Shown: positions 756 to 15,542 of the stretch, in pieces
Layout: each line of letters opens with the position of its first letter
How positions within the stretch are numbered: the first letter of the stretch is position 1
From: Kiritimatiellota bacterium
GTDB taxonomy: Bacteria; Verrucomicrobiota; Kiritimatiellia; JAAZAB01
DNA: 19,637 nt
Direction of reading: 5' to 3'
NCBI GenBank assembly: GCA_008636095.1
Contig: VSJD01000349.1
Span: 1-19,637 of the forward strand
The notes under the pieces: model-generated
What the model was told of the DNA's origin: nothing
What the model saw: the letters and a program-made list of their open reading frames with translations, nothing else
The model's database searches: none
Program-made: the position numbers and the translations under genes

Positions 756-864
756 TTACACTTTGAAATATCCGGGGTAAAGAGTTGGTTTTTCACATTC
801 CATAATAACATTGCATTCAGACGTTCAGCGATTGCATATCAGCCGCATTTATTAATTGAAGATA

Positions 865-1860
865 ATGCTGATAACAGGATATGGATTAATCATGCTGGTT
901 GCCGCGGTACAGATCGTTTCCGGGGCAACCGGATTCGTGTGTGATGATCAGTATCTCCGCCACGATACGGGTCCCGACCATCCCGAACGCCCCGCGCGAT
1001 TAACCGCCATCCTGGACCAATTAAAAACAACCGGCCTGTACGAGCAACTGGTCTGCATCAAACCGCGCCCCTGCGAAAAACAGTGGATCTTGGCAGTTCA
1101 TAGCGAATCCTATCTTCGGCATGTCGCCTCCGTTTGCGCTGACGGCGGACCTTATCTCGATTCCAAGGACAATCCGGTTTCAAAGGAATCGTATGCGTGC
1201 GCGCTTTTGGCGGCAGGAGGTGTACTGGCAGCCGTTGATGCCGTGATGGACCGTCGCGTCCGGAATGCCTTTTGTGCCGTGCGGCCACCCGGCCATCACG
1301 CGTCGCAAGATCGCGCCATGGGTTTTTGCCTTTTCAATAACGCGGCGATCGCGGCCCGCTATATCCAGTCGAAATACCGCCTGAGAAAGATACTAATTGT
1401 GGATTGGGACGTTCATCATGGGAACGGGACGCAAGCCATATTTTACTCCGATCCAACGGTTTTCTATTTTTCAATTCATCAGGATCCATTCTATCCGGGG
1501 AGCGGCATGGCATCTGAACGGGGTTTCGCCAATGCCGAGGGCACCAAGTTGAACGTGCCCATGCCTCGCGGGTCCAGCGGTCTTGAATACCGGACCATGT
1601 TCGAGAAAACACTCAAACCGGCCGCGTTGGCCTTCAAACCGGATTTCGTTCTCGTTTCCGCCGGGTTCGATGCACATGCCAACGATCCGCTGGGTGGCAT
1701 GAACCTGACCGCCGCCGATTTCGGGATTCTGACGCAGACAGTCCGTGACATTGCGAAAACCTGTTGCGCGGACAGACTCGTGATCGTCCTGGAAGGCGGC
1801 TATAATCTCAAAGGATTATCCCGATCGGTGGAAATGGTCATCCGCGAAATTATGAAGTAA
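865..1860 (+). CDS. Histone-deacetylase-family zinc amidohydrolase
   Basis: This is a class II-like member of the HDAC / acetoin utilization protein / acetylpolyamine amidohydrolase family, which removes acetyl groups from amines in a zinc-dependent reaction. Motifs in order are HDTGPDHPERPARL, RPPGHHA (the His pair), FCLFNN, DWDVHHGNGTQ (zinc ligands Asp and second His), FYPGSG, VSAGFDAH (third zinc ligand, Asp) and LEGGYNL (catalytic Tyr). All catalytic residues are present and the domain is full length. The start is uncertain: ATG at 865, TTG at 856 or ATG at 892, none with a clear Shine-Dalgarno. The TTG form begins MKIMLITGYGLIML and reaches VSGA just before the domain, which looks like a signal peptide or membrane anchor, unusual for this family. 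The gene converges on the ten-gene minus-strand cluster with a 25-nt gap. Its real substrate cannot be read from sequence. Confidence 0.9.
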   Translation: MLITGYGLIMLVAAVQIVSGATGFVCDDQYLRHDTGPDHPERPARLTAILDQLKTTGLYEQLVCIKPRPCEKQWILAVHSESYLRHVASVCADGGPYLDSKDNPVSKESYACALLAAGGVLAAVDAVMDRRVRNAFCAVRPPGHHASQDRAMGFCLFNNAAIAARYIQSKYRLRKILIVDWDVHHGNGTQAIFYSDPTVFYFSIHQDPFYPGSGMASERGFANAEGTKLNVPMPRGSSGLEYRTMFEKTLKPAALAFKPDFVLVSAGFDAHANDPLGGMNLTAADFGILTQTVRDIAKTCCADRLVIVLEGGYNLKGLSRSVEMVIREIMK

Positions 1861-1862
1861 AG

Positions 1863-1916
1863 GCGCGCGGGAGGAATATTTAAAATTATTTTCCTTCCGT
1901 TCCGACTCTCGCGCGC
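1863..1916 (-). terminator. GC-rich hairpin between convergent genes (possible terminator)
   Basis: GCGCGCGGGAG (1863-1873) can pair with CTCTCGCGCGC (1906-1916), 11 bp with one G-U pair, around a loop that holds a weaker GGAA/TTCC stem. It spans the 25-nt gap between the deacetylase stop (1860) and the TAA of the minus-strand gene (1886-1888), so it lies at the 3' end of both transcripts. Neither side has a convincing U-tract; the minus side reads only CTTTACTT after the stem. It is a plausible bidirectional end, not a textbook terminator. Confidence 0.35.
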
Positions 1917-3610
1917 AGAATCAAGGCTGTTTCTTTCCTTATCAACCCGAGCAAACATTTCATTTGCTCATCCGAAGAGACGACATATAAAGAAGTGGCC
2001 CGGTCTCTTGTCGCTTTAACCATTGTTCGCAATAGGCCCAGAGCAGTATCCTGACTGCCGCCGATTGTTCTTATATCTCTCCCGATTTTTTTGCACTGTT
2101 CTTCTTTCTGCTCTTCATCTGTTTCCTGGTCGATAAGTTCCACGATTTTCTGCGAGAGCGCAGAAAAGTATTCGGGGGTTTTCATTCGCTTAATGCTGCC
2201 CGCGTATAACCATTTTGTCCCGCTCAACCCTTTCCTGAAATCGCAGACCGTATCGGAAATGTTTTTATTATTTGACTCTTCGGAAACTAAAACAGCGTCA
2301 AATCGCCTGTTCCATTCCATATACTCTTCTATCCTTTTCCGCATGGAGCAGACGAAAAGATCCGTGCTGTTAACATTTTCGGTTATTTTATTCCTTTCCA
2401 TTTTTTCCTCGCTCTTATAGAAAATCTTCTCAATATTCGCGGTGGCGCCGCATGTGGCGCGGCCCTTGTCGTTTTTTGACGGAACGCATGTTATTCTGCT
2501 GTAAGTATCATCGCCGAGCAGGTTTTTAACGGCCGTCAGCGGGAGTTTTATTCCAGCCGGCGTTTCCGGCATGCGGTCAAAAGGATATATGACGGGATCG
2601 AATTTTGAATCGTAAGAATATGCCGGATAGCTTCTGAACTTCGGATACTCGATAACTGTTCTGCCATTCATAAAATTGCATGAATATGTGAAGTTTCCGA
2701 GCCCGGCCGCCCAGGTATTCCCGGTTGCTGGATTTATCAAACCGACTCCCATCTGAATAAGATAATAAACTGGTTTTTTGTCCGGATTTTTTTCAATGAT
2801 GAACCACCGGTCCAGCAGGCCTTTTTCTTCGGGAAATATGCCTGTTTCCTTTTTATAGATTACCGCCCACCGGGCGGGAAAGGGCGGATTCCATTTGATT
2901 TCAACGGCCGCATTGAACGCTTCTTTTCCATCGGCCTTCCACCAGATGTTTTCCCCTGCATTTAACCCGATCCAGACCGATTCGCCGGGAACCAGGGATA
3001 TTTCCGTATAATTAAAACAGTCGGATCCCGGGGCATCCTTTCCGGCGTGAATCTTAATGTTTTCGTTTTTCCATAGAAATGAAAGCATGGCGTTCCGGCC
3101 GTCCAGCAGGTTTACAAAATAAAAGTTGTCGGATGGAATGTTTATCCTGTTCGTCACCGAATCCGGATAAAGCACAAAATCCTCGCTGATCGGATCCGGG
3201 ATTACTACCGCCTTGCTGCGGTGTGAAACACGAAGTTTTCCGGGAAAGCCATTGCCTGCTACATTCAGATATTCGCTATTTTCGGATATTTTAACGACGG
3301 CTTCGCCCCCATTTTTAAGTTTTAGGGACAGTGCGACCTCGGTCGGCCCTTTTTGCTCCGCGCGGAACGATATGGGCCGAACCTTATTGTCCTTTTCATC
3401 AGTGAACTTTATTTCCGCAGACGGCAGCTCAACATCCTTGAAAAAAACCGACAGGTTAATCCTGTTCCCTTCTGTTTTTTCAGCGGAAACACAGATTTTC
3501 CCATTTGATACTTTCAGGAAAGACGCCGTGTCCTCTATTTTAATATCGGCCGCCGCCGCGCCGACCGCCACCGATACAAGTAAAATCTCAAACAGTCCGC
3601 GAATTTTCAT
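1886..3610 (-). CDS. Large secreted protein of unknown family, paralogue A
   Basis: I do not recognise a named family. The 574-residue product starts with a signal peptide (MKIRGLFEILLVSVAVGAAA, cleavage near residue 20-21), so it should be exported. The N-terminal 230 residues look beta-rich; the C-terminal third is charged and helical (EQKEEQCKKIGRDIR, then GLLRTMVKATRDRATS). It is clearly homologous to the gene just upstream (3643-5295). Shared landmarks are a V-I-x-P-D motif near residue 138, LLDGRNAMLSF at 168, W-x-PPF-x-A-x-W at 240, C-x-x-T-A-x-IEKIF at 387-397, TPEYFSA near 481, IRT-(I/L)-GG near 517 and the final EGK. The ATG at 3610 is preceded by AAGGA at 8 nt. It is last in the proposed operon, 32 nt after its paralogue. 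Its place beside an acylation cassette makes a surface or periplasmic role likely; it could be a target, a glycan binder or an enzyme. Confidence 0.85.
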   Translation of the reverse strand: MKIRGLFEILLVSVAVGAAAADIKIEDTASFLKVSNGKICVSAEKTEGNRINLSVFFKDVELPSAEIKFTDEKDNKVRPISFRAEQKGPTEVALSLKLKNGGEAVVKISENSEYLNVAGNGFPGKLRVSHRSKAVVIPDPISEDFVLYPDSVTNRINIPSDNFYFVNLLDGRNAMLSFLWKNENIKIHAGKDAPGSDCFNYTEISLVPGESVWIGLNAGENIWWKADGKEAFNAAVEIKWNPPFPARWAVIYKKETGIFPEEKGLLDRWFIIEKNPDKKPVYYLIQMGVGLINPATGNTWAAGLGNFTYSCNFMNGRTVIEYPKFRSYPAYSYDSKFDPVIYPFDRMPETPAGIKLPLTAVKNLLGDDTYSRITCVPSKNDKGRATCGATANIEKIFYKSEEKMERNKITENVNSTDLFVCSMRKRIEEYMEWNRRFDAVLVSEESNNKNISDTVCDFRKGLSGTKWLYAGSIKRMKTPEYFSALSQKIVELIDQETDEEQKEEQCKKIGRDIRTIGGSQDTALGLLRTMVKATRDRATSLYVVSSDEQMKCLLGLIRKETALILRARVGTEGK

Positions 3611-3642
3611 TTTGGATTCCTTCGTTGATATTTTTCACCCGG

Positions 3643-5295
3643 TCACTTTCCTTCTTCCCCGTGGTGCGGCCGGATTATGACCGAACTTTTTTCGATAAAC
3701 GCGGTCAAAAATTCAGCCTCGGCCGAATCGGATGCCGTCAGAAGGCGTTGAACCGCAGTCCACCGCGCCGCCCGCACGACCTGTCGGCAGTAGCCCAACG
3801 TGTGATGCAAGGTTCCTCCCAGCGTGCGGATTTGGCGGGCAAGTTTATTGCACTCGTCTTCCTGCTTTTCGCCATCGAGGTCGGAATCGATCAGTGCGGC
3901 AACCTTCTCGGTCGTCGCGGAAAAATACTCCGGCGTCTTGAACACCTGCTGTTTTTCGCTCCAGACGAAAGGGATACGGACGAGTATATTGCCCAGTTCT
4001 TGACAAGCCGGCGACAGTTTTGGGTTCTGTTTGTTTTTTTCCGCCATCCAGTGGACGGTGGCGGTTTCCCAGTCCCGGTACTCCTTGGTGCGTTCGCAAT
4101 AGAGAAAGACGATATATTCATTCATCCCTTTCAGAAGAACGGCGATATCTTCTCGTTTTTCTTTCTGTTTTTCTTCTCTGAATATTTTTTCAATAGTCGC
4201 AGTGCCTGAACAGATACCGTGACCTCGCCCTCTCCGCTGGTGCTGCAGCGCCGTTATTTTATCAGCCGGCAGCAGCTTTTTGAGCGCCGGTAGCGGCAGC
4301 ATGGCTTCACCGGCGCTTTTGGACACAGCGTCAAGGGCATAGATCACCTGTGGACGGTCAAAGTTAATCTGTATCGCTTTGTCCGCAAAGATTAGCTGAC
4401 GCATAAACACTTCGCCGTCTTTCAGATAAACCGGATATGTGAAAGAACCGTTAACCTGGTCATAGCCTTGCCAGATGTCGGGTTTGAGAATACTGAATCC
4501 GGGTAGCAGGGAAAGCGGCTTCTGGTCAAATTCAGGAACAGGGAACGACTCGTCAAGGAACAAATCCTTGCCGAACATGTTTATAATACTGTAATTGATC
4601 AGCCATTTCGCATTAAAAGGAGGCTTCCATCCAATTTTTTTGAACTCCACGTCCTCCGGATTTTCCGCGACTTTTCCCCAAATGCCTTCGGCGGCGGGGG
4701 CCCCGATCTGCAACCTGTTTTTACCTTTGAATTCAATCAGACAATAATTGTAATATTGCTCCGTCGTTTTATCCCGTCCGCTGAACACCCGGTCGGCATC
4801 CAGCCATGCGCAGGAAAGCATGGCCCGTCCGCCATCCAACAGGTGAACCACCATCTGGAAACCGGGGAAAACCCGGCCGCCGTTTTCCTTTGGATTTTCA
4901 CGGAAGAAAATATAATTGTCGCTCAAGGTGTCAGGCACAATCATCACTTCACTTTTGAACTTCATCAGAAAAACATTTTCCCGGCTGTCCGGACTGTCAA
5001 ACTCAAGATCAAGATAAGGACCCTGGTCGCGCAGGACAGCGCGCAGCGTCACCTGGTCGCCGCACTCAATTTTAAGGGCGGAACCTGACGGTAATTTTTC
5101 CTCAATGACGGTTTTCATGGCGGCATTAACCACTTGCATTTCTGCGGCCGCCACCGTCCGGCCATTCAGACGATAAGACAACAAGGCCTTGCCGTTATTC
5201 ACTTCCAAGGCAATCTTGCCGTTGAGGATTCCGGCCCTGGCCGTTACAGCCATCGCCGTCAAAATCAAAAGCGTAAATAATCCGCGGATTCCCAT
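3643..5295 (-). CDS. Large secreted protein of unknown family, paralogue B
   Basis: This 550-residue protein is the tandem paralogue of the gene at 1886-3610 and belongs to no family I recognise. The signal peptide is MGIRGLFTLLILTAMAVTAR, cleavage near residue 21; its first seven residues differ from the paralogue's at only one position, which suggests duplication. Conserved points are VPDTLSDNYIF at 120, HLLDGGRAMLS at 151, W-x-PPF-x-A-x-W at 223, C362-S-G-T-A-T-IEKIF, KTPEYFSA, IRTLGG and the final EGK. Outside these blocks the two proteins differ considerably, so the duplication is not recent along the whole length. It starts 20 nt after the SGNH gene stop, with only a weak GGGG ribosome site, and is probably co-transcribed with it. 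No catalytic triad or metal site stands out. The product is probably periplasmic or cell-surface. Confidence 0.85.
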   Translation of the reverse strand: MGIRGLFTLLILTAMAVTARAGILNGKIALEVNNGKALLSYRLNGRTVAAAEMQVVNAAMKTVIEEKLPSGSALKIECGDQVTLRAVLRDQGPYLDLEFDSPDSRENVFLMKFKSEVMIVPDTLSDNYIFFRENPKENGGRVFPGFQMVVHLLDGGRAMLSCAWLDADRVFSGRDKTTEQYYNYCLIEFKGKNRLQIGAPAAEGIWGKVAENPEDVEFKKIGWKPPFNAKWLINYSIINMFGKDLFLDESFPVPEFDQKPLSLLPGFSILKPDIWQGYDQVNGSFTYPVYLKDGEVFMRQLIFADKAIQINFDRPQVIYALDAVSKSAGEAMLPLPALKKLLPADKITALQHQRRGRGHGICSGTATIEKIFREEKQKEKREDIAVLLKGMNEYIVFLYCERTKEYRDWETATVHWMAEKNKQNPKLSPACQELGNILVRIPFVWSEKQQVFKTPEYFSATTEKVAALIDSDLDGEKQEDECNKLARQIRTLGGTLHHTLGYCRQVVRAARWTAVQRLLTASDSAEAEFLTAFIEKSSVIIRPHHGEEGK

Positions 5296-5315
5296 TTTAA
5301 ATTACCCCGTTAATT

Positions 5316-6419
5316 TTATTGTTTTGCATCTCCGGCTTGGAATGCTTTGACAAAATCGGTTTTGAGCAGTTCTTCCGCGATCAGGCGGTATCCTTCCGCA
5401 ACGGGATGGCTGGCATCGGCGTAAAGCTCACTGGGCAATTCCATCGCCGTGTAACAGCTTACATTGTTTTGTTTCAGCCAGGATTCTATTTTAGATCTTA
5501 CCGCTTGGTAATGGCCAAGGCATTCTTTGGTCATCATGTATCCATTAAATGGGCCGACGATAACCAAGACCTCATTATTTCCGGATTTTAAAAGGTTTAT
5601 GGCCTGTTTGAAAGAATGCCATTGATAGGATTTGTCGAGTTCAACCCAGGCATAATCCTGTCCGCCAATCCCCTTGGTGGTCCATGGCGCCGGCGGACTA
5701 TGCGGTTGATTGTCTTCAAATTGCAGTCCTTTACCAAAGATCTTCAGGGGATTTTGATAAGGATTGTCCAGCGTCCATTGCCAGAGACTCATATTCCCGA
5801 AATACGCCGTATTGACATGATTCATCCAGCTCGCGAAAGGTACCCGGCGGTCCAACACGTTGCGAACTTGTTCTGAAAATTCCGCCTGGTAACCGCGTGG
5901 TTTCGAAAAAAACTGCGGCACCAGTCCCGGGTGATTGAAACGCGTTTCTTCGTCTTCTTGTAAATCCAGCTTGGTTGAAGTGAGCCATAAGGGATTCAGG
6001 TTGACTATTACTTTTGTGTTGCGGATGGATGATGCGTAATATTTAATCAGACCAAGCATGGCGGCGGGATGTAGGCCGTCCACTCCCAGGTTGGCAAACA
6101 TTTCACGACCGACCGTCTTGTTTAATGCCTGGGTCAGCGTCTCCTCCTTCTTGACGTATGGCCCCCAGAACACAGAATCGCCCAGCATAATGCATGGATA
6201 TCTCTTCACGGCATAATCGCACCAGCGCTCAAACATCCAGTAATCGCTGCTCAACGCATAGGGCAGGCGATAGTTTGCCGACGGCGTGAACCCTTCCAGC
6301 ATAGGCCATAACCGGGGCACGCCCCACACGATTGCCCCGACGATCAAAACAACCATGGCCCACTGCTTGAAGCTCAACCGCTCCACGTTTGAGGCAAATG
6401 GAATTTCATCATTATTCAT
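5316..6419 (-). CDS. Membrane-anchored SGNH-fold protein, DltD/AlgJ/AlgX-like
   Basis: Such proteins pair with MBOAT transferases in alginate, cellulose and teichoic acid acylation and act on the outer face of the membrane. One hydrophobic segment near the N-terminus (QWAMVVLIVGAIVWGVP) would anchor the protein with its domain outside. Block I is CIMLGDSVFWGP, with the nucleophile Ser in GDS (Ser82 from this start). Block V is DASHP near the C-terminus (Asp335, His338), so a complete SGNH triad appears possible. NLGVDGLHPAAMLGL is the usual second block. Length (367 residues) fits DltD/AlgJ-type proteins. A TTG at 6467 would add 16 residues and overlap the ligase stop by 4 nt (TTGA coupling); I prefer ATG 6419 because the extra residues (PKIIPAGRPAGENK) do not look like a conserved part, but no strong ribosome site decides it. 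The exact subfamily is uncertain. Confidence 0.8.
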   Translation of the reverse strand: MNNDEIPFASNVERLSFKQWAMVVLIVGAIVWGVPRLWPMLEGFTPSANYRLPYALSSDYWMFERWCDYAVKRYPCIMLGDSVFWGPYVKKEETLTQALNKTVGREMFANLGVDGLHPAAMLGLIKYYASSIRNTKVIVNLNPLWLTSTKLDLQEDEETRFNHPGLVPQFFSKPRGYQAEFSEQVRNVLDRRVPFASWMNHVNTAYFGNMSLWQWTLDNPYQNPLKIFGKGLQFEDNQPHSPPAPWTTKGIGGQDYAWVELDKSYQWHSFKQAINLLKSGNNEVLVIVGPFNGYMMTKECLGHYQAVRSKIESWLKQNNVSCYTAMELPSELYADASHPVAEGYRLIAEELLKTDFVKAFQAGDAKQ

Positions 6420-6463
6420 TTTATTTTCGCCCGCTGGTCGTCCCGCCGGGATAATTTTCGGTC

Positions 6464-8101
6464 TCAAATACTATCCAAAGTGCTCACGTCTCCGGCATCT
6501 GTCCCAAGATACTTGGCTTTCAGAACCCGCCGCATGATTTTGCCGCTTTTGTTCTTGGGAATGTTTTCCAATACCTTGAACTCCTGCGGCGTGGCCATGG
6601 TTGAAACCCGATTGGAAACGTGCAAACGCGCTTTAAGTTCCAAGCTGCGGTTCCATTCGTACCCTTTTCGCAAGGCAACAAACGCCACCACTTTCTCCCA
6701 AAGCAAATCATCCGGAGCGCCGATCACCCCGGACTCGGCAATCCCCTCAACCTCCAACAGGGCGCTCTCCACTTCAAACGGGCTGACCAGATGACCCGCC
6801 GTATTGATTACATCGTCACTTCGTCCTCTAAACCAATAATACCCTTCACGGTCACGGTTCGCCGTGTCCCCGGTCATATACCACCCGTGCCGGAATTTTT
6901 GCCGATAGACGTCTGCATGCTGAAAATAGGAAATAAACATTGAGTCCCATCCGGGCCGGAGGCAGAGGTTGCCCTGCTGGTTGTCCGCAAGAACCTCCCC
7001 TTTGTCCGACACAATGGCGGCTTCAATACCCGTCAGGGGTTTACCCATTGAACCCGGCTTGATCGGCAAACCGGGACGATTAGTGATCATAATGGCGCCT
7101 GTTTCGGTTTGCCACCACGTGTCGTAGATATCATGCCCCAACACCTTTTTTCCCCAACTGATCACTTCGGGGTTCAAAGGTTCGCCCACGCTGAAAACGT
7201 GGCGAAGTTTTGAAAGGTCGAACTGGGAAAAAGTCGCCGGTTCTTCCCGCATTAACATGCGCAGAGCCGTCGGCGCGGTGTACCACGCCGTTACGCGCTG
7301 TTCCACCAGGATTTTGAACCATTCCACGGCATCATACGCGCCGCCAAAATGGACCTGCGTAATACCCATACTCCAGGGGGCGATGATTCCATAAGAAGTT
7401 CCCGTAACCCACCCGTGATCAGCCGTGCACCAGAAAATATCATCAGGCTGAAGATGCAGCACTTCCGTTGCGGTCCGATTTTGGATAAGAACACTGCGAT
7501 GGCAATGCAATACGCCTTTCGGTTTGCCGGTTGAACCTGACGTGTAATGCAAAACCGATGGAGTATCCGGAGTAGTCAACGGCGTCTCAAACGACGGCGA
7601 AGCCGCCTGCATCAGAACGGGCATGCTAAGAATATCCTCGGCCTGATGTTCGGGAACGTCCGTCAAGATGATGAACTTCAAATCCGGCAGCTTTTCCCGG
7701 ATCCGCAGTAATTTCTTAAGGTAACTTTTTCGGGTCAGGATGCCTTTCGCCTTCGCATCACCCAACCGATCCAGCAACGCGTCCTCGCCAAAATTGGAGA
7801 ATAAAGTTCCGGTGATTACGCGGGCCTTAAGCGCTCCCAAAAACGAAGAAAATACTTCCGGGATTTTAGGAAGGAAAATAAAAAACACATCGCCCGCCGA
7901 AAAACCCGTTTTTTGCAGGACATTGGCGAAACGCGAGCTTTTTTCTTCCAAATCTCCAAAAGTCCATTCGACCCGTTCGCCATGCGCACCAAGCCAACGC
8001 AGGGCGGTTTTATTGGATAGACCCTGGTCACATTGCAGACGAGTACAAATATGGCCGATATTATATTGCCCGTTCTGAATAAAAGATGGATTTGCACTCA
8101 T
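6464..8101 (-). CDS. Acetyl-CoA-synthetase-like AMP-forming acyl ligase
   Basis: This is an ANL-superfamily adenylating enzyme: carboxylic acid plus ATP gives acyl-AMP, then a thioester on CoA or a carrier protein. The P-loop-like motif YTSGSTGKPKG is complete. DTWWQTETG is the motif of acetyl/propionyl-CoA synthetases; its second Trp corresponds to Trp414 of Salmonella Acs, which keeps the acid pocket small. HGWYMTGD and the hinge/C-domain YWFRGRSDDVI follow, and NKSGKIMRR holds the catalytic Lys. I chose ATG 8101 (545 residues) because AAAGGA lies 8 nt upstream; ATG 8191, one base after the MBOAT stop, would add 30 unmatched residues. In place it occupies the DltA slot between the MBOAT and SGNH genes and close to a carrier-protein gene. 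Whether it loads the carrier or makes acetyl-CoA is inference; the small-acid preference is by motif. Confidence 0.88.
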   Translation of the reverse strand: MSANPSFIQNGQYNIGHICTRLQCDQGLSNKTALRWLGAHGERVEWTFGDLEEKSSRFANVLQKTGFSAGDVFFIFLPKIPEVFSSFLGALKARVITGTLFSNFGEDALLDRLGDAKAKGILTRKSYLKKLLRIREKLPDLKFIILTDVPEHQAEDILSMPVLMQAASPSFETPLTTPDTPSVLHYTSGSTGKPKGVLHCHRSVLIQNRTATEVLHLQPDDIFWCTADHGWVTGTSYGIIAPWSMGITQVHFGGAYDAVEWFKILVEQRVTAWYTAPTALRMLMREEPATFSQFDLSKLRHVFSVGEPLNPEVISWGKKVLGHDIYDTWWQTETGAIMITNRPGLPIKPGSMGKPLTGIEAAIVSDKGEVLADNQQGNLCLRPGWDSMFISYFQHADVYRQKFRHGWYMTGDTANRDREGYYWFRGRSDDVINTAGHLVSPFEVESALLEVEGIAESGVIGAPDDLLWEKVVAFVALRKGYEWNRSLELKARLHVSNRVSTMATPQEFKVLENIPKNKSGKIMRRVLKAKYLGTDAGDVSTLDSI

Positions 8102-8109
8102 GTTAAGCG

Positions 8110-8115
8110 TCCTTT
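8110..8115 (-). promoter_or_regulatory. Ribosome binding site deciding the ligase start at 8101
   Basis: AAAGGA on the minus strand sits 8 nt before ATG 8101. The alternative upstream ATG at 8191 has only AT-rich sequence in the same position, so the shorter protein is favoured. Confidence 0.6.
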
Positions 8116-8192
8116 CACCCTTCTTCGCCAGCATGGCTTCGCAGGGTTCCGCAAAGGCTTTACTACGGATATCTTTGGCATTCTTTTTCATA

Positions 8193-9800
8193 TCAAAATT
8201 GAAAATAAATGAAGGCGCTTCCGCCGGATGAACTGAAAAAGAGGCCGAGCACCATCAAAACCGCGATGCCCACCCTCACAAAACCTGTTTTCAGCACATC
8301 CTGAAAACGCGACTCGCATAAAAACTCATAAATCCAAACCAATCCTACCAGCACCAGTATCAACACCGGGATTTGCGGATCCTGCCACGCCGCAGTGAAA
8401 ATACGCCGAATAATCAATAGCGCCTCAGGCAATGACTGGGCACGAAAAAAAATCCAGGTAAAGGTCACAAAAGTAAAAACAAAAAACTGTTTGACTATTT
8501 TTGGCACCCGCTTGCGATAAAAGGCCGAGCGTTCCAACCCGAATGTACCTGCCAGACCGAGCCCGTGCAACGCGCCCCAGGCCACAAACGTCCATGCCGC
8601 GCCGTGCCAGATGCCCGAAACGAGGAAGGTCACCACCAAGGCCAAGGCTATGCCCGCGTTGCGCCACGTCCGCCAGCGCATTTGCAGCGGCATGAAAATA
8701 TAATCCAAAATCCATCGCGAAAATGAAATATGCCAGCGCCGCCAGAAATCGCCCAGGCCGGTTGCCAGATACGGATGGTTGAAGTTCAAAACCAGGTTGA
8801 ATCCCATAAGTTTTGCCACACCCCGCGCCATGTCCGTATAGCCGCCGAAGTCAAAGAAAATTTGCCACGCATAGGCGACGCTGGCGAGGATCAGCGCCGG
8901 CGCGCCGAAAGTTTGAGGCGCGGCATAAACGCGCTCAACATACAAGGCCAGCCATCCGGCCAACACCATTTTTTTGAACAGGCCGGTGAGGAACAGCGAC
9001 AGAGCGTCCGTGAAGTTTTGCGCGCAAATTGCCGGAAATTGCCGGAACTGCGGCAACAGCTGTTCCGCCCGTTCGATCGGGCCAGCCATAAGCTGGGGGA
9101 AAAAGCAAACGAAATTTGCAAAGCGGAGAAGGTTCCGCTCACGTGCCGTCTTTCCAAGATATAAATCGATGAGGTACCCCATGGCCTGGAAAGTGAAGAA
9201 CGAAATGCCGATCGGCAGGAGATAATCAAGACCGAACGGCATGAGCGCAGAAGCATCGGGCAGCTTTGCCGGAATATGCAGCCAGGATAGAACCGCATTA
9301 AGATTTTCACTGATGAACCGGGCATATTTGAAGAACAGCAGGGGCACGCCGGCGTTGAACAAGCCAACCACGAGCCAAATTTCACGGCTCCCGTAAAGCG
9401 CGCCCAGGGCCATGAGCAGCATGATCAAGCCGAGTCCGCCCGCGAACGGCCGCAGTGTTTGCGGTCCGGCCCAGGCCATGCCCCCAAAAACCAGGCTCCC
9501 CAGGATGAAAAGGATAAAAGCGGTTTTTACCAGCCGGTCATTAAACTGAAACCGTAGCAAGCGTGCGCGAAGATTCGTCTTTTGGTTTTCAACAGGGCAG
9601 CGGTCCATCAATGCCGCCAGAATAAAAACAACTACGGTGATATAGAAAATAAGGACGAGATAATAGGGATTCCACCACCCATAAAAAAAGTAAGAGGCGG
9701 CAATAAGTCCCAAGAGCCAAAACGGGGTTTTGCGCAGCGCAAAAAACGCCGGCAACACGATCAGCAGGAAGCATAGGAATGGCCAGGTATAAAAGAGCAT
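8193..9800 (-). CDS. MBOAT-family membrane O-acyltransferase (AlgI/DltB type)
   Basis: A 535-residue polytopic membrane protein that moves an acyl group across or onto the outer side of the membrane for transfer to an exported acceptor. The family signature is strong: SYFFYGWWNPYYLVL near residue 36, LLPIGISFFTFQAMGYLID at 194, FFPQLMAGPIERAEQLLPQ at 233, FFDFGGYTDMARGVAKLMG at 315, NHPYLATGLGDFWRRWHIS at 341 (His357), SGIWHGAAWTF with the catalytic His399, and the terminal FIYFQF. About 75 residues between positions 75 and 150 add extra hydrophobic segments compared with the shortest AlgI proteins. It follows the carrier-protein gene by 62 nt and precedes the ligase; only a weak GAGA ribosome site is seen. 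By position it is the DltB equivalent. Acyl donor and acceptor are unknown. Confidence 0.93.
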   Translation of the reverse strand: MLFYTWPFLCFLLIVLPAFFALRKTPFWLLGLIAASYFFYGWWNPYYLVLIFYITVVVFILAALMDRCPVENQKTNLRARLLRFQFNDRLVKTAFILFILGSLVFGGMAWAGPQTLRPFAGGLGLIMLLMALGALYGSREIWLVVGLFNAGVPLLFFKYARFISENLNAVLSWLHIPAKLPDASALMPFGLDYLLPIGISFFTFQAMGYLIDLYLGKTARERNLLRFANFVCFFPQLMAGPIERAEQLLPQFRQFPAICAQNFTDALSLFLTGLFKKMVLAGWLALYVERVYAAPQTFGAPALILASVAYAWQIFFDFGGYTDMARGVAKLMGFNLVLNFNHPYLATGLGDFWRRWHISFSRWILDYIFMPLQMRWRTWRNAGIALALVVTFLVSGIWHGAAWTFVAWGALHGLGLAGTFGLERSAFYRKRVPKIVKQFFVFTFVTFTWIFFRAQSLPEALLIIRRIFTAAWQDPQIPVLILVLVGLVWIYEFLCESRFQDVLKTGFVRVGIAVLMVLGLFFSSSGGSAFIYFQF

Positions 9801-9862
9801 ATATGAAATCTCGCGAGTTGAAAACGCGCCTTGCGGAACCAGCCCGGGCGGCTTCAGCGCGG

Positions 9863-10108
9863 TTACGAGCCGGCGGCCCCCAGCTTATTTTCAATGTTCC
9901 GCAGTAGATCGCCGACATTCTTGAAAGTCAACAGTTCTCTTTCAGTAAACCGAATGCTAAAGCCTTCTTCCACGGCCAGGATCAGGTTCACATGGGACAA
10001 GGAATCCCAGCCGTCAATGTCGCCGGCGGTCATCTCCGGGCAGATATTGATTTCGTCGTTTTCAAAGACGGTTCGGAAAATATCGTTTAGTTTTTCAGCG
10101 GTTTTCAT
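9863..10108 (-). CDS. Acyl carrier protein
   Basis: An 81-residue acidic carrier with the phosphopantetheine attachment motif GWDSLSHVNLI (Ser in DSL, about residue 37), followed by the helix II to III pattern EEGFSIRFTERELLTFKNV and the final helix DLLRNIENKL. The serine would carry a 4'-phosphopantetheine arm holding the acyl group. It resembles stand-alone carriers of modification clusters more than fatty-acid AcpP, because no fatty-acid synthesis genes lie nearby and an MBOAT gene follows directly. It starts 4 nt after the FGE-domain gene stop with GGAGGGTG upstream, so the two are translationally close. By position it is the DltC equivalent. Its cargo is inferred from the neighbouring ligase. 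Confidence 0.9.
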   Translation of the reverse strand: MKTAEKLNDIFRTVFENDEINICPEMTAGDIDGWDSLSHVNLILAVEEGFSIRFTERELLTFKNVGDLLRNIENKLGAAGS

Positions 10109-10112
10109 AATG

Positions 10113-10943
10113 TCATTTCACCCTCCGTACACAGCGGAACCCATACGTATCATAGCCCTGACAGATGTCCGCGGTTACGGGATTATCCGCCATCCTTGCT
10201 GATGAACTCAAGTTTTTTGCCCGGCTGGCCCAGGCGCCGCCCCGGAGCACCCGCTTGTTTCCGCTTTGCGGTCCCGACGGATTATTCTCCGGACTGATTG
10301 AATAATATCCGGGATCATAAAAGTCATGGCACCATTCCGCCACGTTGCCATACATATCATAAAGTCCAAAAGGATTGGGTTTCTTTGTGCCGACTTTATG
10401 CGCTTTCTCGTCGGAATTATTCCGGTACCATGCATACTGCCGCAGTTCCGATTCGCCGCCGTTGAAAAAACAGTTCCCGGTCGTCCCGGCGCGGCAGGCG
10501 TATTCCCATTCCGCTTCAGTCGGAAGCCGGTAACCGCTGGCGGTGAAATCACACTCCCATGTTTGAGGATTATAACACGGCTTAAGCCCCTCCTTTTCAG
10601 ATCTGGCGTTGCAGTAGAGCGCGGCTTCCGGCCACCTGATCTGTTCCACCGGCCCCTGGATATCCCTGAATTTTGACGGGTTAATTTTAGTCAGTTTCTG
10701 GAAAGATTCCTGGGTTACCTCGCAAGCGTCCATATAAAAACTATCCACTACCACCTTGTGAACTTCTTTCTCGTCATCTTTGCCGTTTGCCGAACCCATC
10801 CGCAACGAACCGCCCGGTATCAAAACCATTTTTACGCCGCCAAAACCCGTGATTTTCCTGGCTAACTCTTCCCCGGCGGCAAACTGAAGCAAGATTGCGA
10901 ACGTTAAAGCCACGCCCAGAGCTTTTATATGATGTTTTTTCAC
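10113..10943 (-). CDS. Secreted FGE-sulfatase (SUMF1/EgtB/PvdO-fold) domain protein
   Basis: A 276-residue protein with a signal peptide (MKKHHIKALGVALTFAILLQ, cleavage near AAG-E25) followed by one complete FGE-sulfatase domain. Landmarks are VLIPGGSLRMGS, VVVDSFYMDACEVTQESF, GYRLPTEAEWEYACRAGT, GLYDMYGNVAEW, RVLRGGAWASRA and the closing YGFRCVR. In formylglycine-generating enzymes two active-site cysteines lie shortly after the GG(S/A)(Y/W) motif; here that stretch reads AWASRAKNLSSSARM with none, so it is probably not a sulfatase-activating enzyme. Related domains serve in other oxidative reactions or as sugar-binding or scaffold modules. The GTG start is backed by AGGAGGA 7 nt upstream. 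It lies 15 nt after the 406-residue secreted protein and 4 nt before the carrier-protein gene, so it belongs to the operon. Role unknown. Confidence 0.88.
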   Translation of the reverse strand: MKKHHIKALGVALTFAILLQFAAGEELARKITGFGGVKMVLIPGGSLRMGSANGKDDEKEVHKVVVDSFYMDACEVTQESFQKLTKINPSKFRDIQGPVEQIRWPEAALYCNARSEKEGLKPCYNPQTWECDFTASGYRLPTEAEWEYACRAGTTGNCFFNGGESELRQYAWYRNNSDEKAHKVGTKKPNPFGLYDMYGNVAEWCHDFYDPGYYSISPENNPSGPQSGNKRVLRGGAWASRAKNLSSSARMADNPVTADICQGYDTYGFRCVRRVK

Positions 10944-10950
10944 CGTCTGA

Positions 10951-10957
10951 TCCTCCT
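10951..10957 (-). promoter_or_regulatory. Strong ribosome binding site for the FGE-domain gene
   Basis: AGGAGGA lies in the 15-nt gap after the upstream TAG and 7 nt before the GTG at 10943. It is the best Shine-Dalgarno in the window and makes the GTG start convincing. Confidence 0.65.
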
Positions 10958-10958
10958 G

Positions 10959-12179
10959 CTATTTTCTGTAATAAATATCCACCGGTTTGCCGCCGGGCAA
11001 TATATCGAATTTAATCCCGCGCTTTTCCTTAAAGACGACATATTCATAACGGATTTCCTGCTTATCGCAAAAAGCCTTCGCTTCCCACGTTTGAGGAGGC
11101 AGGATAATTATTGCCGTAAGGGACTGTTCTGATTTAAATCCCTCGGGAAACCCTATTAACGATACTTTTATGTGATTCTTGCCGTCATCATCCTTTATAA
11201 CCTTCGCGGATTTCATCAGCTTTATGTAATTACCGACTTTTTCAACAGAATCTTTCCAGATCACGCAATCTAGCTTGCCTAAATATTCAAGGTGCTTTTT
11301 ATAACCTTCTTCCGAAGATTTACGCGCTGATTCCGGGTAGACCTCAATCAACCATTTCTTCTCATTCTCGGCTTTATCCGCCATTGCGTTCGCATCATCC
11401 GGCAGTTTCTTTCCTTCGGTATTGAAAATGATTGTATTATCGCCTTTGGGCGCCGTTGCCTTGTCATTTATTATTGATACGGCGCAATCCTTATCCCAAT
11501 ACCATGCGCAAATCATGCCGTCCATGCCTGCGGTGGCAGCTTTGCCGGCCGCTTTAATCCCGGCGATGCGGACGCCGATTGTGTTTTTTGACTGAAGTTC
11601 TTTGATATTCAGGCTTCTCAAATTCTCCACTTTTGAAATAGAAAACCATGACTGGCAAAGACACTTTTTCCCTTTCATCTCAAAACTCTGCCTCTTCCCG
11701 AACTCGATTACCTCCGGATTTACCGTAACGCTGAATATCCCGAAAAGATCGTTATTGACGTCAATGAACACGGTTTCAAACTTCGCTGTCGCAAGCTCTG
11801 ATTTCCAGCTGATAGCCGCTTCATAAGGCGTATTGATTTCAAGAATCTTTCTGCCGTTCATCAAAAGCTCGTGAAAACCCTTGTCCCCAAAATTACAGCC
11901 CATTCCCGCCGCCATTATGAACGTCACCTTATTGTTTCTGAGGTTTTCCGGAACAATCGCCGATTGCCATCTCATAAATTCAAGGCCGCTCGCCGGATAT
12001 TCCCAGAAACTATCCGTAAGTTCCCCGGTAAGACAGGTGTATTTCTCGGCGTTGGAAGCCTTCACCCCGACACTCCAGTCTACCCCGTCGACAACATCCT
12101 GTTCCGAACCGCAAACACCTTCCATCGCCATTAAACCGGACATTAGAAATACCAATGTTAAATCCAATTTCCTTTTCAT
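10959..12179 (-). CDS. Secreted protein of unknown function with a beta-sandwich-like N-terminal region
   Basis: The 406-residue product begins with a signal peptide (MKRKLDLTLVFLMSGLMAME, cleavage near VCG-S25). I cannot name a family with confidence. Residues about 45-190 (SFWEYPASGLEFMRW, AAGMGCNFGDKGFHELLMNG, FGIFSVTVNPEVIEFG) have alternating strands, a central N-G-(R/K) turn and an aromatic pattern reminiscent of carbohydrate-binding jelly-roll modules that recur in secreted proteins of the PVC group. Residues about 215-310 read like an esterase- or peptidase-like core (GMDGMICAWYWDKDCAVSII) without a visible catalytic triad, and the last 100 are strand-rich, ending VDIYYRK. It follows the FecR-like gene by 34 nt. 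An AGGA lies about 12 nt before the ATG. It could be the sensed surface component, a glycan binder or a target of the acylation genes; none is proven. Confidence 0.8.
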   Translation of the reverse strand: MKRKLDLTLVFLMSGLMAMEGVCGSEQDVVDGVDWSVGVKASNAEKYTCLTGELTDSFWEYPASGLEFMRWQSAIVPENLRNNKVTFIMAAGMGCNFGDKGFHELLMNGRKILEINTPYEAAISWKSELATAKFETVFIDVNNDLFGIFSVTVNPEVIEFGKRQSFEMKGKKCLCQSWFSISKVENLRSLNIKELQSKNTIGVRIAGIKAAGKAATAGMDGMICAWYWDKDCAVSIINDKATAPKGDNTIIFNTEGKKLPDDANAMADKAENEKKWLIEVYPESARKSSEEGYKKHLEYLGKLDCVIWKDSVEKVGNYIKLMKSAKVIKDDDGKNHIKVSLIGFPEGFKSEQSLTAIIILPPQTWEAKAFCDKQEIRYEYVVFKEKRGIKFDILPGGKPVDIYYRK

Positions 12180-12213
12180 CTTTTATTGCCGTCCTTTCTC
12201 TATTGATCCCAAA

Positions 12214-13305
12214 TCAGGAGTAATTTGCGCCTCTTCTTTTGATGCTCTTGATGGTGTTCTCAAGACATATATCCACGTTTTTTCGCTTCTGATAATTAAC
12301 GAGCAGTTCCTCATATTTTGATTCGCTCAGCGAAAGTTGTTTTTTTAACTCCGCGAACCGGGCGCCGGCTTTGGATCCTTCTGCCGACAGTTCCGCCGCC
12401 AGCAACTTTGAAGTTCCTTCTTGCGATAACACCAGACAATACCCGGCTTCAATTGTTAACGGATTCGGTTTATCCGCCAGTTCCAGAGAAACCGAACCGC
12501 AACTGACTTCCACAAAAACACTACCGTTTGAAACCGCCAGTATGAACCTGGCATCCCTGGCGCTTAATTCGCCCCCCGGTAAAGACACCTTGAATACCCC
12601 GTGATTTTTCGCTTTCAATATGTCGGCATCAATAACGCCTTCGCGTAGGCACATTTTTCTGCCCCCTGGTTGCGTCCCGCTCCCCGTATTCAAGCCGGAA
12701 ACCTCGGAAAATTTAATAGTGCTGCCACCGCCGATTTCTATCCGGCTCAAGTCTGAAAACATAACAAATGAACAGCTTCCGGCATAAGTCCTGATTATAT
12801 CCTTATCCTCAATCTGCATGCCGTTGTTAATGGCCGACCGTTTCATATTCCTTTCAAGCAGTCCCCCCGGAGTTGACGTCAGGAGACACGGCCTTGACGC
12901 CGGCCTGCCTTTCGCGCCACCGTTATAATGCGCCATAAGGCAAATGCCGCCGACGCCAAGCAATATCATAAAGCTCGCCGCCAAAGATAAATTTCTAATC
13001 GCAAATATATTCTTGTGTCCATCAGTCAAAGCCTCGCCGGATTTCAGGCTTGTCGCTTTTATTCCATTCATGACATTATTGATAAAATACTTGCTGTTTG
13101 CGGCCTCGTTCCCAAAGCCTGTGCTCACCGCAAGAATCCCTTCCATTACCCGGCGTTTGGATTCGCAAACAGCCGCGTCAGCCATAATCTGCCCCATAAT
13201 CGCGGCGGCGCCCCCCTTCGCTAATCCGAAGTGAGCGAAAAGCAATCCATCAAAAGCTCTTTTAACCGCCTCGTTTTTAATATCGCCTTTATTCCCGGCG
13301 TTCAT
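12214..13305 (-). CDS. FecR-like transmembrane anti-sigma factor / regulator
   Basis: A 363-residue protein with a helical N-terminal part of about 100 residues, one membrane segment (LSLAASFMILLGVGGICLMA, about 106-125) and a periplasmic FecR-type region. That region has the usual beta elements: CSFVMFSDLSRIEIGGGSTI, CLREGVIDADI, FKVSLPGGELSARDARFILAV and VFVEVSCGSVSLEL. FecR proteins hold or activate a partner ECF sigma factor in response to an outer-surface signal. Its start overlaps the sigma gene stop by 4 nt (ATGA), the normal arrangement of such a pair. A charged helix at the C-terminus (FAELKKQLSLSESKYEELLV) could form a short coiled coil and is less typical. No TonB-dependent receptor is nearby, so the signal input differs from iron-type systems or lies elsewhere. 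Confidence 0.85.
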   Translation of the reverse strand: MNAGNKGDIKNEAVKRAFDGLLFAHFGLAKGGAAAIMGQIMADAAVCESKRRVMEGILAVSTGFGNEAANSKYFINNVMNGIKATSLKSGEALTDGHKNIFAIRNLSLAASFMILLGVGGICLMAHYNGGAKGRPASRPCLLTSTPGGLLERNMKRSAINNGMQIEDKDIIRTYAGSCSFVMFSDLSRIEIGGGSTIKFSEVSGLNTGSGTQPGGRKMCLREGVIDADILKAKNHGVFKVSLPGGELSARDARFILAVSNGSVFVEVSCGSVSLELADKPNPLTIEAGYCLVLSQEGTSKLLAAELSAEGSKAGARFAELKKQLSLSESKYEELLVNYQKRKNVDICLENTIKSIKRRGANYS

Positions 13306-13847
13306 ATTTCCATTACTCCCTCTTCAGCGCCCGTCATTTTTTTGTCAATACATGCTTTTAAACCGCCGCGGATCCTTTCAAGCCTTTTTCTGACGGTCGG
13401 TTCGCTTAAATGTTCACTTTCCGCTATTTCCGCGCATTTCCTCTTTTCATAATAAAAAAGTTCGACAATCCTTCTATGGATTAACGACAAGGTCTCGAGG
13501 CATTTCTTAAGAATGCCAAAAACATCATTCCCGCTATTTCTGCCGAGTTCATCCCAGTTTTCGTATTCCCTTTCGATCAAGTCTATTATCTCCTGCTCAA
13601 GCGGTATTTCCCGATTTTTCCTGATTCTTTCCAGATATTTATTTCTGATTATTCCTCTTATCCAGCTTCCAAAACTACCCAGCATAGAATCAAAATTATC
13701 GAAGCTTTTAAATGCTTCCATAAGCGATTCCTGCGCAACCTCTTGCGCCGTATGGTAATTCTCCGACAGCGAATAGGCGTAAGCCAAAGCCATTTTATGA
13801 TGCTTAATCAGTAGTTCCTCAAACATCTTAACCTTATCCTGATTCAC
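13302..13847 (-). CDS. ECF-type RNA polymerase sigma-70 factor
   Basis: A 181-residue extracytoplasmic-function sigma factor with only regions 2 and 4, as the family requires. Region 2 spans about residues 17-76: AYSLSENYHTAQEVAQESL, then FGSWIRGIIRNKYLERIRK. Region 4 lies near 115-165: LIHRRIVELFYYEKRKCAEI, followed by the helix-turn-helix EHLSEPTVRKRLERIRGGL. It would direct RNA polymerase to its own operon and perhaps other sites. The start is GTG at 13847 with AAGGTGA upstream. It is the first gene of the ten-gene minus-strand series and overlaps the FecR-like gene by 4 nt. It looks more AT-rich by eye than the glycosyltransferase and ATPase genes to its right, which hints at a separate origin. 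Confidence 0.93.
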   Translation of the reverse strand: MNQDKVKMFEELLIKHHKMALAYAYSLSENYHTAQEVAQESLMEAFKSFDNFDSMLGSFGSWIRGIIRNKYLERIRKNREIPLEQEIIDLIEREYENWDELGRNSGNDVFGILKKCLETLSLIHRRIVELFYYEKRKCAEIAESEHLSEPTVRKRLERIRGGLKACIDKKMTGAEEGVMEI

Positions 13848-14341: not shown

Positions 14342-15448
14342 TTAGCCCCGAATCCGTCGGCTGGCAGACGCCACATTCAGCATCTCCAGCGCGATGGTCA
14401 TCACGCATTCGGACGTTATCGCACGCACGCAGGAGCCGTCTTTGAACTTGCATCGTTCTGCAAAACAGGGCTGACAGCGCAGGTTGCCTGCCACCACCCG
14501 GTTGCGATCACCATAGGGACCCGTACGCTTCTTGTCGGTCGGGCCGAATACGGCCAGGACGGGCGTGCCCAGGCTGGCCGCCATGTGCATGGGACCGGAA
14601 TCATTGGCAATCACCAGGTTCATGGCCTGCAACACTCCGCCCAATTGCGGCAGGGATAGTTTGCCGGCCAGGTTCATGACGCGTCCCTTGAATTCTTTTT
14701 CCATCTCCGCGCAGGCCGCCGCCTCCGCGGCGCCGCCGATCAGGAAAATTGAGGCGTTGGCATGTTCCTGCAGGTCGCGGCCGGTCTGGACGAACGAGGG
14801 CATCGGCCAGTTTTTACTCGGCCAGCGCGAAAACGGGATCAGCGCCACGCGGGGTTCCGGCTCGCCCACAAGTTGCATGGGAAACTCCAAGGGAAACACC
14901 GGCGGCAAGACAGGTAATCCCAAGTGCCGGACCACGTCCAGGTTTTCCTCGACGGCGTGCCGGTCCTTGTTGCGGGGGCCGGCTATTGTCTGGTAAAACA
15001 GCCGCGAACCTTCCCGGTGAAAGGATGGCCCTATCCGCTGACTGCCGCGCGCGAGCCGGGAGGCCAGCGCGCTCTTGAGAATGCCCTGCAGGTCCACAAT
15101 CAGGTCATACGGTTCGGCGCGCAGAGCCCGCACGTCGCCTATCAGGACGCCCGACCAGACATCCCGCGCAAGCGGGATGACGCGGTCCACGTCGGTAAAA
15201 CACGCTACCAGTTCCTGGTAGGCCGGATGCACCACCCAGTCAACCGTCGCTTGCAGGCCAGCCTTCAGGCAGTGCACGGCCGGGAGGGCGTGAAACAGGT
15301 CTCCCAACGAACTTAATTTAACCACCAGCACTCGTGAAGCAACTGCGCCAGCCCGTCTGGAGCGCGACGACTGCCTGTCCGCAATACTACGCATAGCGTT
15401 ACAGGCGGGCGGGCTGACGGATTGCGGGCGGACCGTCATTTTTTTCAT
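14342..15448 (-). CDS. Glycosyltransferase family 9 protein (heptosyltransferase-like)
   Basis: GT9 enzymes transfer ADP-heptose or related sugars to the lipopolysaccharide core at the inner membrane. The domain opens with RVLVVKLSSLGDLFHALPAV (residue 37 from this start), the canonical GT-B N-terminus with the SSLGD loop. YDLIVDLQGILKSAL follows. The C-terminal half has VALIPFSRWPSKNWP and ANDSGPMHMAASLGTPVLAV (DSGP at 283-286), then FGPTDKKRTGPYG. The tail holds five cysteines (C-x2-C-x4-C-x6-C-x7-C), common in this family. The frame stays open upstream to a TTG at 15565 inside the kinase-like gene; ATG 15448 is the most sensible start, with ATG 15394 possible, and neither has a good ribosome site. 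The donor and acceptor sugars cannot be assigned. The kinase-like gene lies 94 nt upstream on the same strand. Confidence 0.88.
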   Translation of the reverse strand: MKKMTVRPQSVSPPACNAMRSIADRQSSRSRRAGAVASRVLVVKLSSLGDLFHALPAVHCLKAGLQATVDWVVHPAYQELVACFTDVDRVIPLARDVWSGVLIGDVRALRAEPYDLIVDLQGILKSALASRLARGSQRIGPSFHREGSRLFYQTIAGPRNKDRHAVEENLDVVRHLGLPVLPPVFPLEFPMQLVGEPEPRVALIPFSRWPSKNWPMPSFVQTGRDLQEHANASIFLIGGAAEAAACAEMEKEFKGRVMNLAGKLSLPQLGGVLQAMNLVIANDSGPMHMAASLGTPVLAVFGPTDKKRTGPYGDRNRVVAGNLRCQPCFAERCKFKDGSCVRAITSECVMTIALEMLNVASASRRIRG

Positions 15449-15542
15449 ACCGGCATCATATCGCACAGCCAGACCCCGATGCAACGGAAAAACACGGCAT
15501 GCGTGGCATGCGGGAAGGGGCATGCCGGAAAGTTGGACCCGG

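What the first reader, a model, noticed from the sequence alone, without database searches (positions are those of the whole stretch)
1886..13847. Ten-gene cluster with a Dlt-like acylation core under its own ECF sigma/FecR pair
Seen: ten minus-strand genes with small gaps or overlaps (the largest about 90 nt). The order is sigma, FecR-like, secreted protein, FGE-domain protein, carrier protein, MBOAT, acyl ligase, SGNH protein, secreted paralogues B and A. Known: DltA (ligase), DltB (MBOAT), DltC (carrier) and DltD (SGNH) acylate teichoic acids in Gram-positive bacteria. Inferred: this is an analogous four-part acyl export system in a Gram-negative cell, with dedicated regulators and four secreted partners I cannot match to a known pathway.
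Basis: partly seen in the sequence, partly recalled or inferred. Interest (0 to 1): 0.8.

Follow-up and report, generated by a model that had tools for sequence, protein, structure and literature searches.

The report
Surface acetylation cassette with exported HDAC
This gene cluster, from an uncultured relative of Kiritimatiellota/Lentisphaerae bacteria, looks like a machine that carries acetyl groups across the cell membrane onto a surface sugar polymer; its conserved parts differ from the 'Dlt' parts first proposed, and it is linked to an exported-looking, histone-deacetylase-like enzyme that may remove such groups.

Summary
The ten-gene cluster is real. The 'Dlt-like core' is only partly right. 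Seventeen loci (window plus 16) hold the MBOAT-SGNH pair. What recurs is FGE-like + MBOAT + SGNH (FGE in 16 of 17), usually with a secA/B-family protein (12 of 17). Ligase and carrier were found in the window only. The ligase is acetate-CoA-ligase-like. The MBOAT ends in FIYFQF, the FXYXXF acyl-Tyr shuttle of PatA-type systems; the SGNH triad is invariant in 13 of 13. Best reading: export of acetyl or another short acyl group onto an exported glycan; sigma/FecR-like genes in 4 of 17 loci. Close relatives are fused to an FGE-like protein inside one cassette and overlap the SGNH gene in another, within one supported clade. That suggests an acetylation/deacetylation pair outside the cytoplasm. 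Acyl group, acceptor and HDAC substrate are inferred. New variant of a known kind.

The parts
856..1860 (+). HDAC-family (class II-like) deacylase with signal-like N-terminal extension; convergent neighbour, 25 nt from secA; proposed part of the system
   Evidence: PF00850 355 bits; motifs RPPGHH, DWDVHHGNG, AGFDAH, GGYN; HDAC6 alignment starts only at residue 24 and leaves a hydrophobic leader; relatives fused to or overlapping cassette genes
1886..3610 (-). secA: secreted protein of the secA/B family, C-terminus TEGK
   Evidence: signal-like N-terminus; closest window match of the family member in the cassettes compared
3643..5295 (-). secB: paralogue of secA; N-terminal galactose-mutarotase/GH38-type sandwich in the model, helical C-terminal half, C-terminus EEGK
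5316..6467 (-). SGNH acyltransferase-like protein with one hydrophobic N-terminal segment (by inspection); triad S98, D351, H354
   Evidence: invariant in 13 of 13 aligned
6464..8191 (-). AMP-forming acyl (acetate-type) CoA ligase; not found in the 16 relative cassettes
   Evidence: PRK04319 acetate-CoA ligase 692 bits, cut-off 729; best solved relative acetyl-CoA synthetase 9g79
8193..9800 (-). MBOAT membrane acyltransferase; candidate catalytic His399
   Evidence: PF03062; DltB structures as solved relatives; distinct subfamily by bit score
8196..8213 (-). MBOAT C-terminal FIYFQF acyl-shuttle motif (residues 530-535, Tyr532)
   Evidence: F530, Y532, F535 in 13 of 13; motif known from PatA/DltX (PMC12148441)
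9863..10108 (-). acyl carrier protein with DSL motif (Ser36); not found in the 16 relative cassettes
   Evidence: PF00550, motif
10113..10943 (-). exported-looking FGE-fold protein without the FGE catalytic cysteine pair; most constant partner
   Evidence: PF03781; first Cys 0 of 15, second 7 of 15, window neither; FGE-like protein in 16 of 17 loci
10959..12179 (-). secC: secreted protein with a possible CBM35/BcsB-like N-terminal domain (weak)
12214..13305 (-). FecR-domain regulator, probable anti-sigma
   Evidence: PF04773
13302..13847 (-). ECF sigma factor, Rhodopirellula/Verrucomicrobium type
   Evidence: TIGR02989 98.7 bits, below cut-off 124.55; TIGR02937 75 bits, above cut-off 42.9

Best explanation
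An MBOAT-SGNH O-acylation system, most likely O-acetylation. In this genome the ligase activates acetate (or a similar short acid) to acyl-CoA and the carrier protein may hold acyl groups. The MBOAT takes the acyl group from the cytoplasmic donor and passes it across the inner membrane to Tyr532 of its own C-terminal FIYFQF tail. The membrane-anchored SGNH protein collects it on Ser98 and transfers it to hydroxyls of an exported glycan. SecA/secB, the FGE-fold protein and secC hold or present that glycan. The neighbouring exported HDAC-family enzyme removes acyl groups (probably N-acetyl) from the same material. The ECF sigma/FecR pair switches the operon on. Shown here: gene content, motifs, conservation, linkage. 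Inferred: acyl identity, acceptor, export of the partners, regulation, HDAC substrate.
Confidence: 0.6

Rival explanations
1. One reading: a Dlt-type pathway in which the ligase charges the carrier protein with an amino acid or acid and the MBOAT uses only acyl-carrier.
For: In this window all four functional types are interleaved and nearly touching; the solved relatives of the MBOAT are DltB.
Against: Dlt models missed by wide margins (DltB 158 of 375 bits, DltD 14 of 150, DltC 15 of 52). Ligase is acetate-CoA-ligase-like. No ligase or carrier found in the 16 relative cassettes. MBOAT has its own shuttle motif.
Confidence: 0.1
2. The acceptor is protein: secA/secB themselves (or another secreted protein) are acylated, the conserved C-terminal [ED]G[KR] tail being a docking or acceptor site.
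For: C-terminus exactly [ED]G[KR] in 23 of 28 well-matched family members, [ED]G plus 3-4 residues in the other 5 (my count); family co-inherited with the SGNH protein; an HDAC-type eraser usually acts on acyl-lysine (recalled).
Against: MBOAT-SGNH pairs of known function acylate polymers (PMC12148441); two weak partial relatives lack the tail (L053:4179-5846, L057:1766-3430); secA/B genes are not beside L096 or L164 and occur without the pair beside them in L025 and L026; glycan-degrading neighbours.
Confidence: 0.12
3. The HDAC gene is an AcuC-like cytoplasmic regulator of the cluster's acetate-CoA ligase and has nothing to do with the exported material.
For: Two Legionella deacylases deacetylate B. 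subtilis AcsA (PMC11532494, passage seen); the window has both gene types.
Against: Signal-like leader in the window and in L164, L083 and L084 (by inspection); fusion to an FGE-like protein with a lipoprotein-like leader in L052; the ligase was not found in the other two HDAC-linked cassettes.
Confidence: 0.1
4. The cassette acts on foreign glycans that the cell captures and degrades, as part of a polysaccharide-utilisation programme, rather than on the cell's own polymer.
For: SecA/B family genes lie near GH20, alpha-galactosidase, GH42 or sulfatase genes in L016, L026, L051, L054 and L056, and an alpha-galactosidase gene lies between MBOAT and FGE in L017.
Against: None of the ten window genes is a glycoside hydrolase; neighbours of the other cassettes were scanned only in part; adding acyl groups would usually hinder degradation.
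Confidence: 0.15

Closest known systems
PatA-PatB peptidoglycan O-acetylation (MBOAT-SGNH)
   Same: MBOAT with C-terminal FXYXXF tyrosine shuttle plus separate SGNH protein with Ser-Asp-His triad (PMC12148441)
   Different: recurrent FGE-like and secA partners, own ECF/FecR in some loci, HDAC link; no evidence that the acceptor is peptidoglycan
AlgI-AlgJ-AlgX-AlgF alginate O-acetylation
   Same: MBOAT plus SGNH plus several periplasmic partner proteins, exported polysaccharide acceptor (roles recalled; the PMC12148441 abstract extends the shuttle model to alginate)
   Different: secA, secB and secC have no Pfam family and were not compared directly with AlgF or AlgX; no polymer synthase among the ten genes
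DltABCD/DltX D-alanylation of teichoic acids
   Same: ligase, carrier, MBOAT and SGNH types all present in this window
   Different: ligase of acetate-CoA type, Dlt models missed, shuttle on the MBOAT itself, ligase and carrier not found in the 16 relatives
Bacterial classical (HDAC-family) deacylases
   Same: PF00850 domain with the family's active-site motifs
   Different: signal-like leader, FGE fusion and overlap with an acyl-exporter gene in relatives; in the main text of the bacterial survey PMC11532494 the words 'periplasm' and 'signal peptide' occur 0 times, the exported cases found in the passages being type IV effectors

Membership tests
MBOAT-SGNH envelope acyltransferase (PatAB type) | MBOAT domain with invariant His | tested here: met
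   PF03062 72 bits, cut-off 27; His357 and His399 13 of 13
MBOAT-SGNH envelope acyltransferase (PatAB type) | C-terminal FXYXXF shuttle motif on the MBOAT | tested here: met
   FIYFQF; F, Y, F invariant 13 of 13
MBOAT-SGNH envelope acyltransferase (PatAB type) | partner SGNH protein with Ser, Asp, His triad | tested here: met
   S98, D351, H354 13 of 13
MBOAT-SGNH envelope acyltransferase (PatAB type) | acyl-Tyr intermediate and transfer to polymer | not testable with these tools
   needs biochemistry
Dlt system | DltA-type D-alanine carrier ligase | tested here: not met
   best NCBIfam model is acetate-CoA ligase PRK04319 (692 bits); no DltA model among the best 25 of 108 shown, the lowest shown having 147 bits
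Dlt system | DltB equivalog | tested here: not met
   TIGR04091 158.2 bits, cut-off 375
Dlt system | DltC equivalog | tested here: not met
   TIGR01688 14.7 bits, cut-off 52.35
Dlt system | DltD equivalog | tested here: not met
   TIGR04092 14.3 bits, cut-off 150; PF04914 19.9, cut-off 22.7
Dlt system | DltX microprotein | not tested
   ORFs under 80 aa were not listed in the window
Formylglycine-generating enzyme | catalytic Cys pair | tested here: not met
   position of first Cys never Cys (0 of 15), second 7 of 15; window has neither
Acetate-CoA ligase (PRK04319) | curated score | tested here: inconclusive
   692.1 bits against cut-off 729
HDAC-family deacylase | domain and active-site motifs | tested here: met
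HDAC-family deacylase | deacylase activity and substrate | not testable with these tools
   needs assay
ECF sigma with FecR-domain regulator | sigma-70 regions 2 and 4; FecR domain; overlapping genes | tested here: met

The most novel reading that the evidence does not exclude
An envelope 'writer-eraser' module: an MBOAT-SGNH acyl exporter writes acetyl groups on a surface polymer or secreted protein, and a dedicated exported HDAC-family enzyme erases or remodels acetyl groups outside the cytoplasm, with lectin-like FGE-fold and sandwich-fold proteins presenting the substrate and an ECF/FecR pair sensing it. This would be an envelope role for classical HDAC-type deacylases.
Probability: 0.3. 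Interest if true: 0.8.

Novelty: new variant of a known kind. Interest (0 to 1): 0.58.

Why it matters
It defines a compact, recurrent acyl-export cassette in Kiritimatiellota/Lentisphaerae-type bacteria with two secreted protein families of unknown function that can now be tested against a known enzymatic mechanism. The link, in three arrangements (convergence, fusion, overlap), to an HDAC-family enzyme with a leader makes a concrete prediction: that HDAC-type deacylases can work outside the cytoplasm in concert with acyl transfer to surface material.

Tried and rejected
Dlt homology: rejected as membership, kept as a rival for mechanism. Active FGE (sulfatase maturation): rejected, cysteine pair absent. 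Anti-phage defence: no PADLOC match at E<=0.001 for the ten proteins. Rfam match at gathering score or tRNA in the window: none. Terminator and promoter scans over the whole window: 37 terminator-like sites against 27.7 expected and 27 promoter-like against 16.1, on both strands, uninformative for transcript ends. SGNH protein against the PDB by sequence: only chance-level matches, best E 0.2. Named genome collection with the single secB sequence: no relative; with the alignment: 3 loci. Protein search with A3: the same ten proteins, only 7,999 candidates scored; it missed the diverged secA proteins that genome searches found, so it is not exhaustive. SecC single-sequence search: 5 of 288 phylum genomes, three of them (window included) with long matches. 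Genome of L026: no SGNH match. HDAC linkage as a general rule: rejected, 148 of 387 genomes have HDAC homologues, far more than the 15 with strong SGNH matches; only one clade is linked. Stretches around the HDAC genes of G318, G352, G096 and the second one of G373 hold no cassette gene (L098-L101). Foldseek for secC: no match at E<=0.001. Paper searches on the cassette and on exported bacterial HDACs: no listed title or abstract start describes either; some listings were capped (15 of 1,044, 10 of 6,675) and the library is open-access only. Papers: PMC12148441 abstract and passages; PMC11532494 passages only; others search listings only. Profile annotation covered all neighbourhood stretches fetched by the fetch from genomes or the search for related loci, but Pfam was run only on 30 ORFs of relative loci that I picked.
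Full report
Observation. The window is a whole contig of a fragmented genome. Source names of relatives are Victivallaceae, Lentisphaerae, Kiritimatiellia and Verrucomicrobiae, with single records labelled Moranbacteria and Spirochaetia, so the host is most likely a PVC-group bacterium. Cluster genes have G+C 0.41-0.53 against 0.54-0.62 for four of the five genes around it; the kinase gene has 0.48. None of 9 same-genus or same-family genomes has a secB or SGNH match, so the cluster is patchy in its own family.

What is conserved. Profile searches of 387 phylum genomes gave 13 genomes for the secA/B family and 17 for the SGNH family, of which 15 are strong and 2 weak (E 3e-5 and 1e-4). All 13 are among the 15 (hypergeometric 2e-22). 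The SGNH profile came from neighbours of secA genes, so this mainly shows that unlinked SGNH relatives are rare. Of the two extra genomes, one contig ends right after the SGNH gene (L097, G333) and one has no secA gene beside it (L096, G390); neither genome is among the matches. A further SGNH fragment at a contig edge (L024, G013, a 69% complete genome) also has no secA gene on its contig or match in its genome.

I annotated 34 fetched stretches with profiles (25, window included; 2; 7 more; L027 and L051 are the same contig). Seventeen hold both MBOAT and SGNH: window, L016, L017, L020, L052, L053, L055, L058-L063, L096, L097, L163, L164. An FGE-like gene is in 16 of 17 (L096 breaks inside the MBOAT gene). 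A secA/B gene is in 12 of 17; of the five without, L097 and L163 break at the SGNH end, L017 and L164 have one elsewhere in their genomes, and L096 has none found. Eight loci have FGE-MBOAT-SGNH-sec in this order and direction (L020, L053, L055, L058, L059, L060, L061, L063); the window has it with the carrier inserted after FGE and the ligase after MBOAT; L016, L052 and L062 have the four genes in other orders. Ligase or carrier: found in the window only. In the 16 relatives the MBOAT-SGNH gap is -14 to 58 nt, so no ligase can sit there. The carrier is short and was sought with one sequence at E<0.01, so a diverged one could be missed, but only L017, L020 and L062 have over 250 nt between the nearest co-directional FGE gene and MBOAT. 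Sigma and FecR-like genes in line: 4 of 17 (window, L020, L055, L164); the L164 FecR-like protein matches the window's (57 bits) but no Pfam family. SecC is in 3 of these 4. In G318 a contig with sigma-FecR-secC ends where another begins with FGE (L021, L053), an inferred fifth. The other 17 stretches hold single cassette-type genes, sigma-FecR-secC, HDAC genes, FGE and secA/B genes without the pair, or (L022) nothing at these thresholds; L057 has SGNH, secA relatives and FGE with the MBOAT side cut off.

Trees. The combined FGE+MBOAT+SGNH tree (13 rows, 10 of 10 inner branches starred) puts the window with the three same-class cassettes. The FGE tree alone places the window beside L053 and L055 at weak support (60/67). 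In 288 same-class genomes MBOAT matches are common (172 at E<=1e-80), but the five cassette MBOATs score 656-738 bits and the next 484: the cassette MBOAT is its own subfamily, and MBOAT genes as such are ordinary here.

Mechanism. Known from print: in PatA an invariant Tyr of a C-terminal FXYXXF motif is acetylated from acetyl-CoA, and an acetyl-Tyr peptide donates to PatB; the authors extend this to other MBOAT-SGNH pairs, and DltX carries the same motif in Dlt systems (PMC12148441, abstract and passages). Here the MBOAT ends FIYFQF, with F530, Y532 and F535 invariant in 13 of 13; His357 and His399 are invariant; SGNH Ser98, Asp351 and His354 are invariant. The ligase is nearest to acetate-CoA ligases, its best solved relative is an acetyl-CoA synthetase, and it keeps the DTWW motif, whose second Trp I recall as limiting the pocket to short acids. 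A second acetate-ligase-like gene lies elsewhere in the genome at 43% identity. Hence acetyl or another short acyl is the likeliest group, and a cytoplasmic acyl-CoA pool could serve relatives without ligase.

The HDAC gene. The plus-strand gene 856-1860, converging on secA, is an HDAC-family gene with the family's motifs. It follows a GGAGG ribosome-site-like sequence and starts with a hydrophobic leader beyond the HDAC6-aligned part. In L052 its homologue (57%) is the second half of a 662-residue protein whose first half is an FGE-like domain 55% identical to the window's, next to the MBOAT gene. In L164 (genome of Lentisphaerae bacterium GWF2_45_14) the order is sigma-FecR-FGE-MBOAT-SGNH-HDAC, the HDAC start overlaps the SGNH stop by 4 nt, and the protein has a signal-like leader and 54% identity to the window's. 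In a 28-row tree of high-scoring HDACs these three and the HDACs of G318, G352 and G249 form one clade, 99/97. G318 and G352 carry cassette genes elsewhere in the genome; G249 is not among the secA or SGNH matches. HDAC homologues in general are common (148 of 387), and other leader-bearing ones exist in genomes without secA or SGNH matches, such as G038 and G075. So the link concerns this clade only. Leaders were judged by eye and hydropathy; no signal-peptide predictor was at hand.

Verdict. MBOAT-SGNH acyl export is well supported by motif, conservation and neighbourhood; Dlt membership is not met; acyl group, acceptor and HDAC substrate remain inference. New variant of a known kind.

Noticed in passing
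   Followed up: partly
L052:5797-7785: Fusion of an FGE-like domain with an HDAC domain behind a lipoprotein-like leader.
   Followed up: yes
L022:12223-12345: A short stretch 66% identical to part of the secC N-terminal domain just upstream of a 1007-residue ORF without Pfam match in a same-genus genome; one search reports one stop within its match; possibly a decayed or frameshifted relative.
   Followed up: partly
L023:5410-6492 and 11512-12582: Two 356-360 residue proteins with weak secC N-domain similarity; the first has no Pfam match; neighbouring ORFs look like glycosyltransferases by eye only.
   Followed up: no
L053:165-6678: A cassette with two FGE genes, a 1061-residue PD40/CBM9 protein and an extra diverged secA relative.
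   Followed up: no
window 14342-16619: A glycosyltransferase family 9 gene overlaps a protein-kinase-domain gene by 23 nt upstream of the cluster; relation unknown.
   Followed up: no
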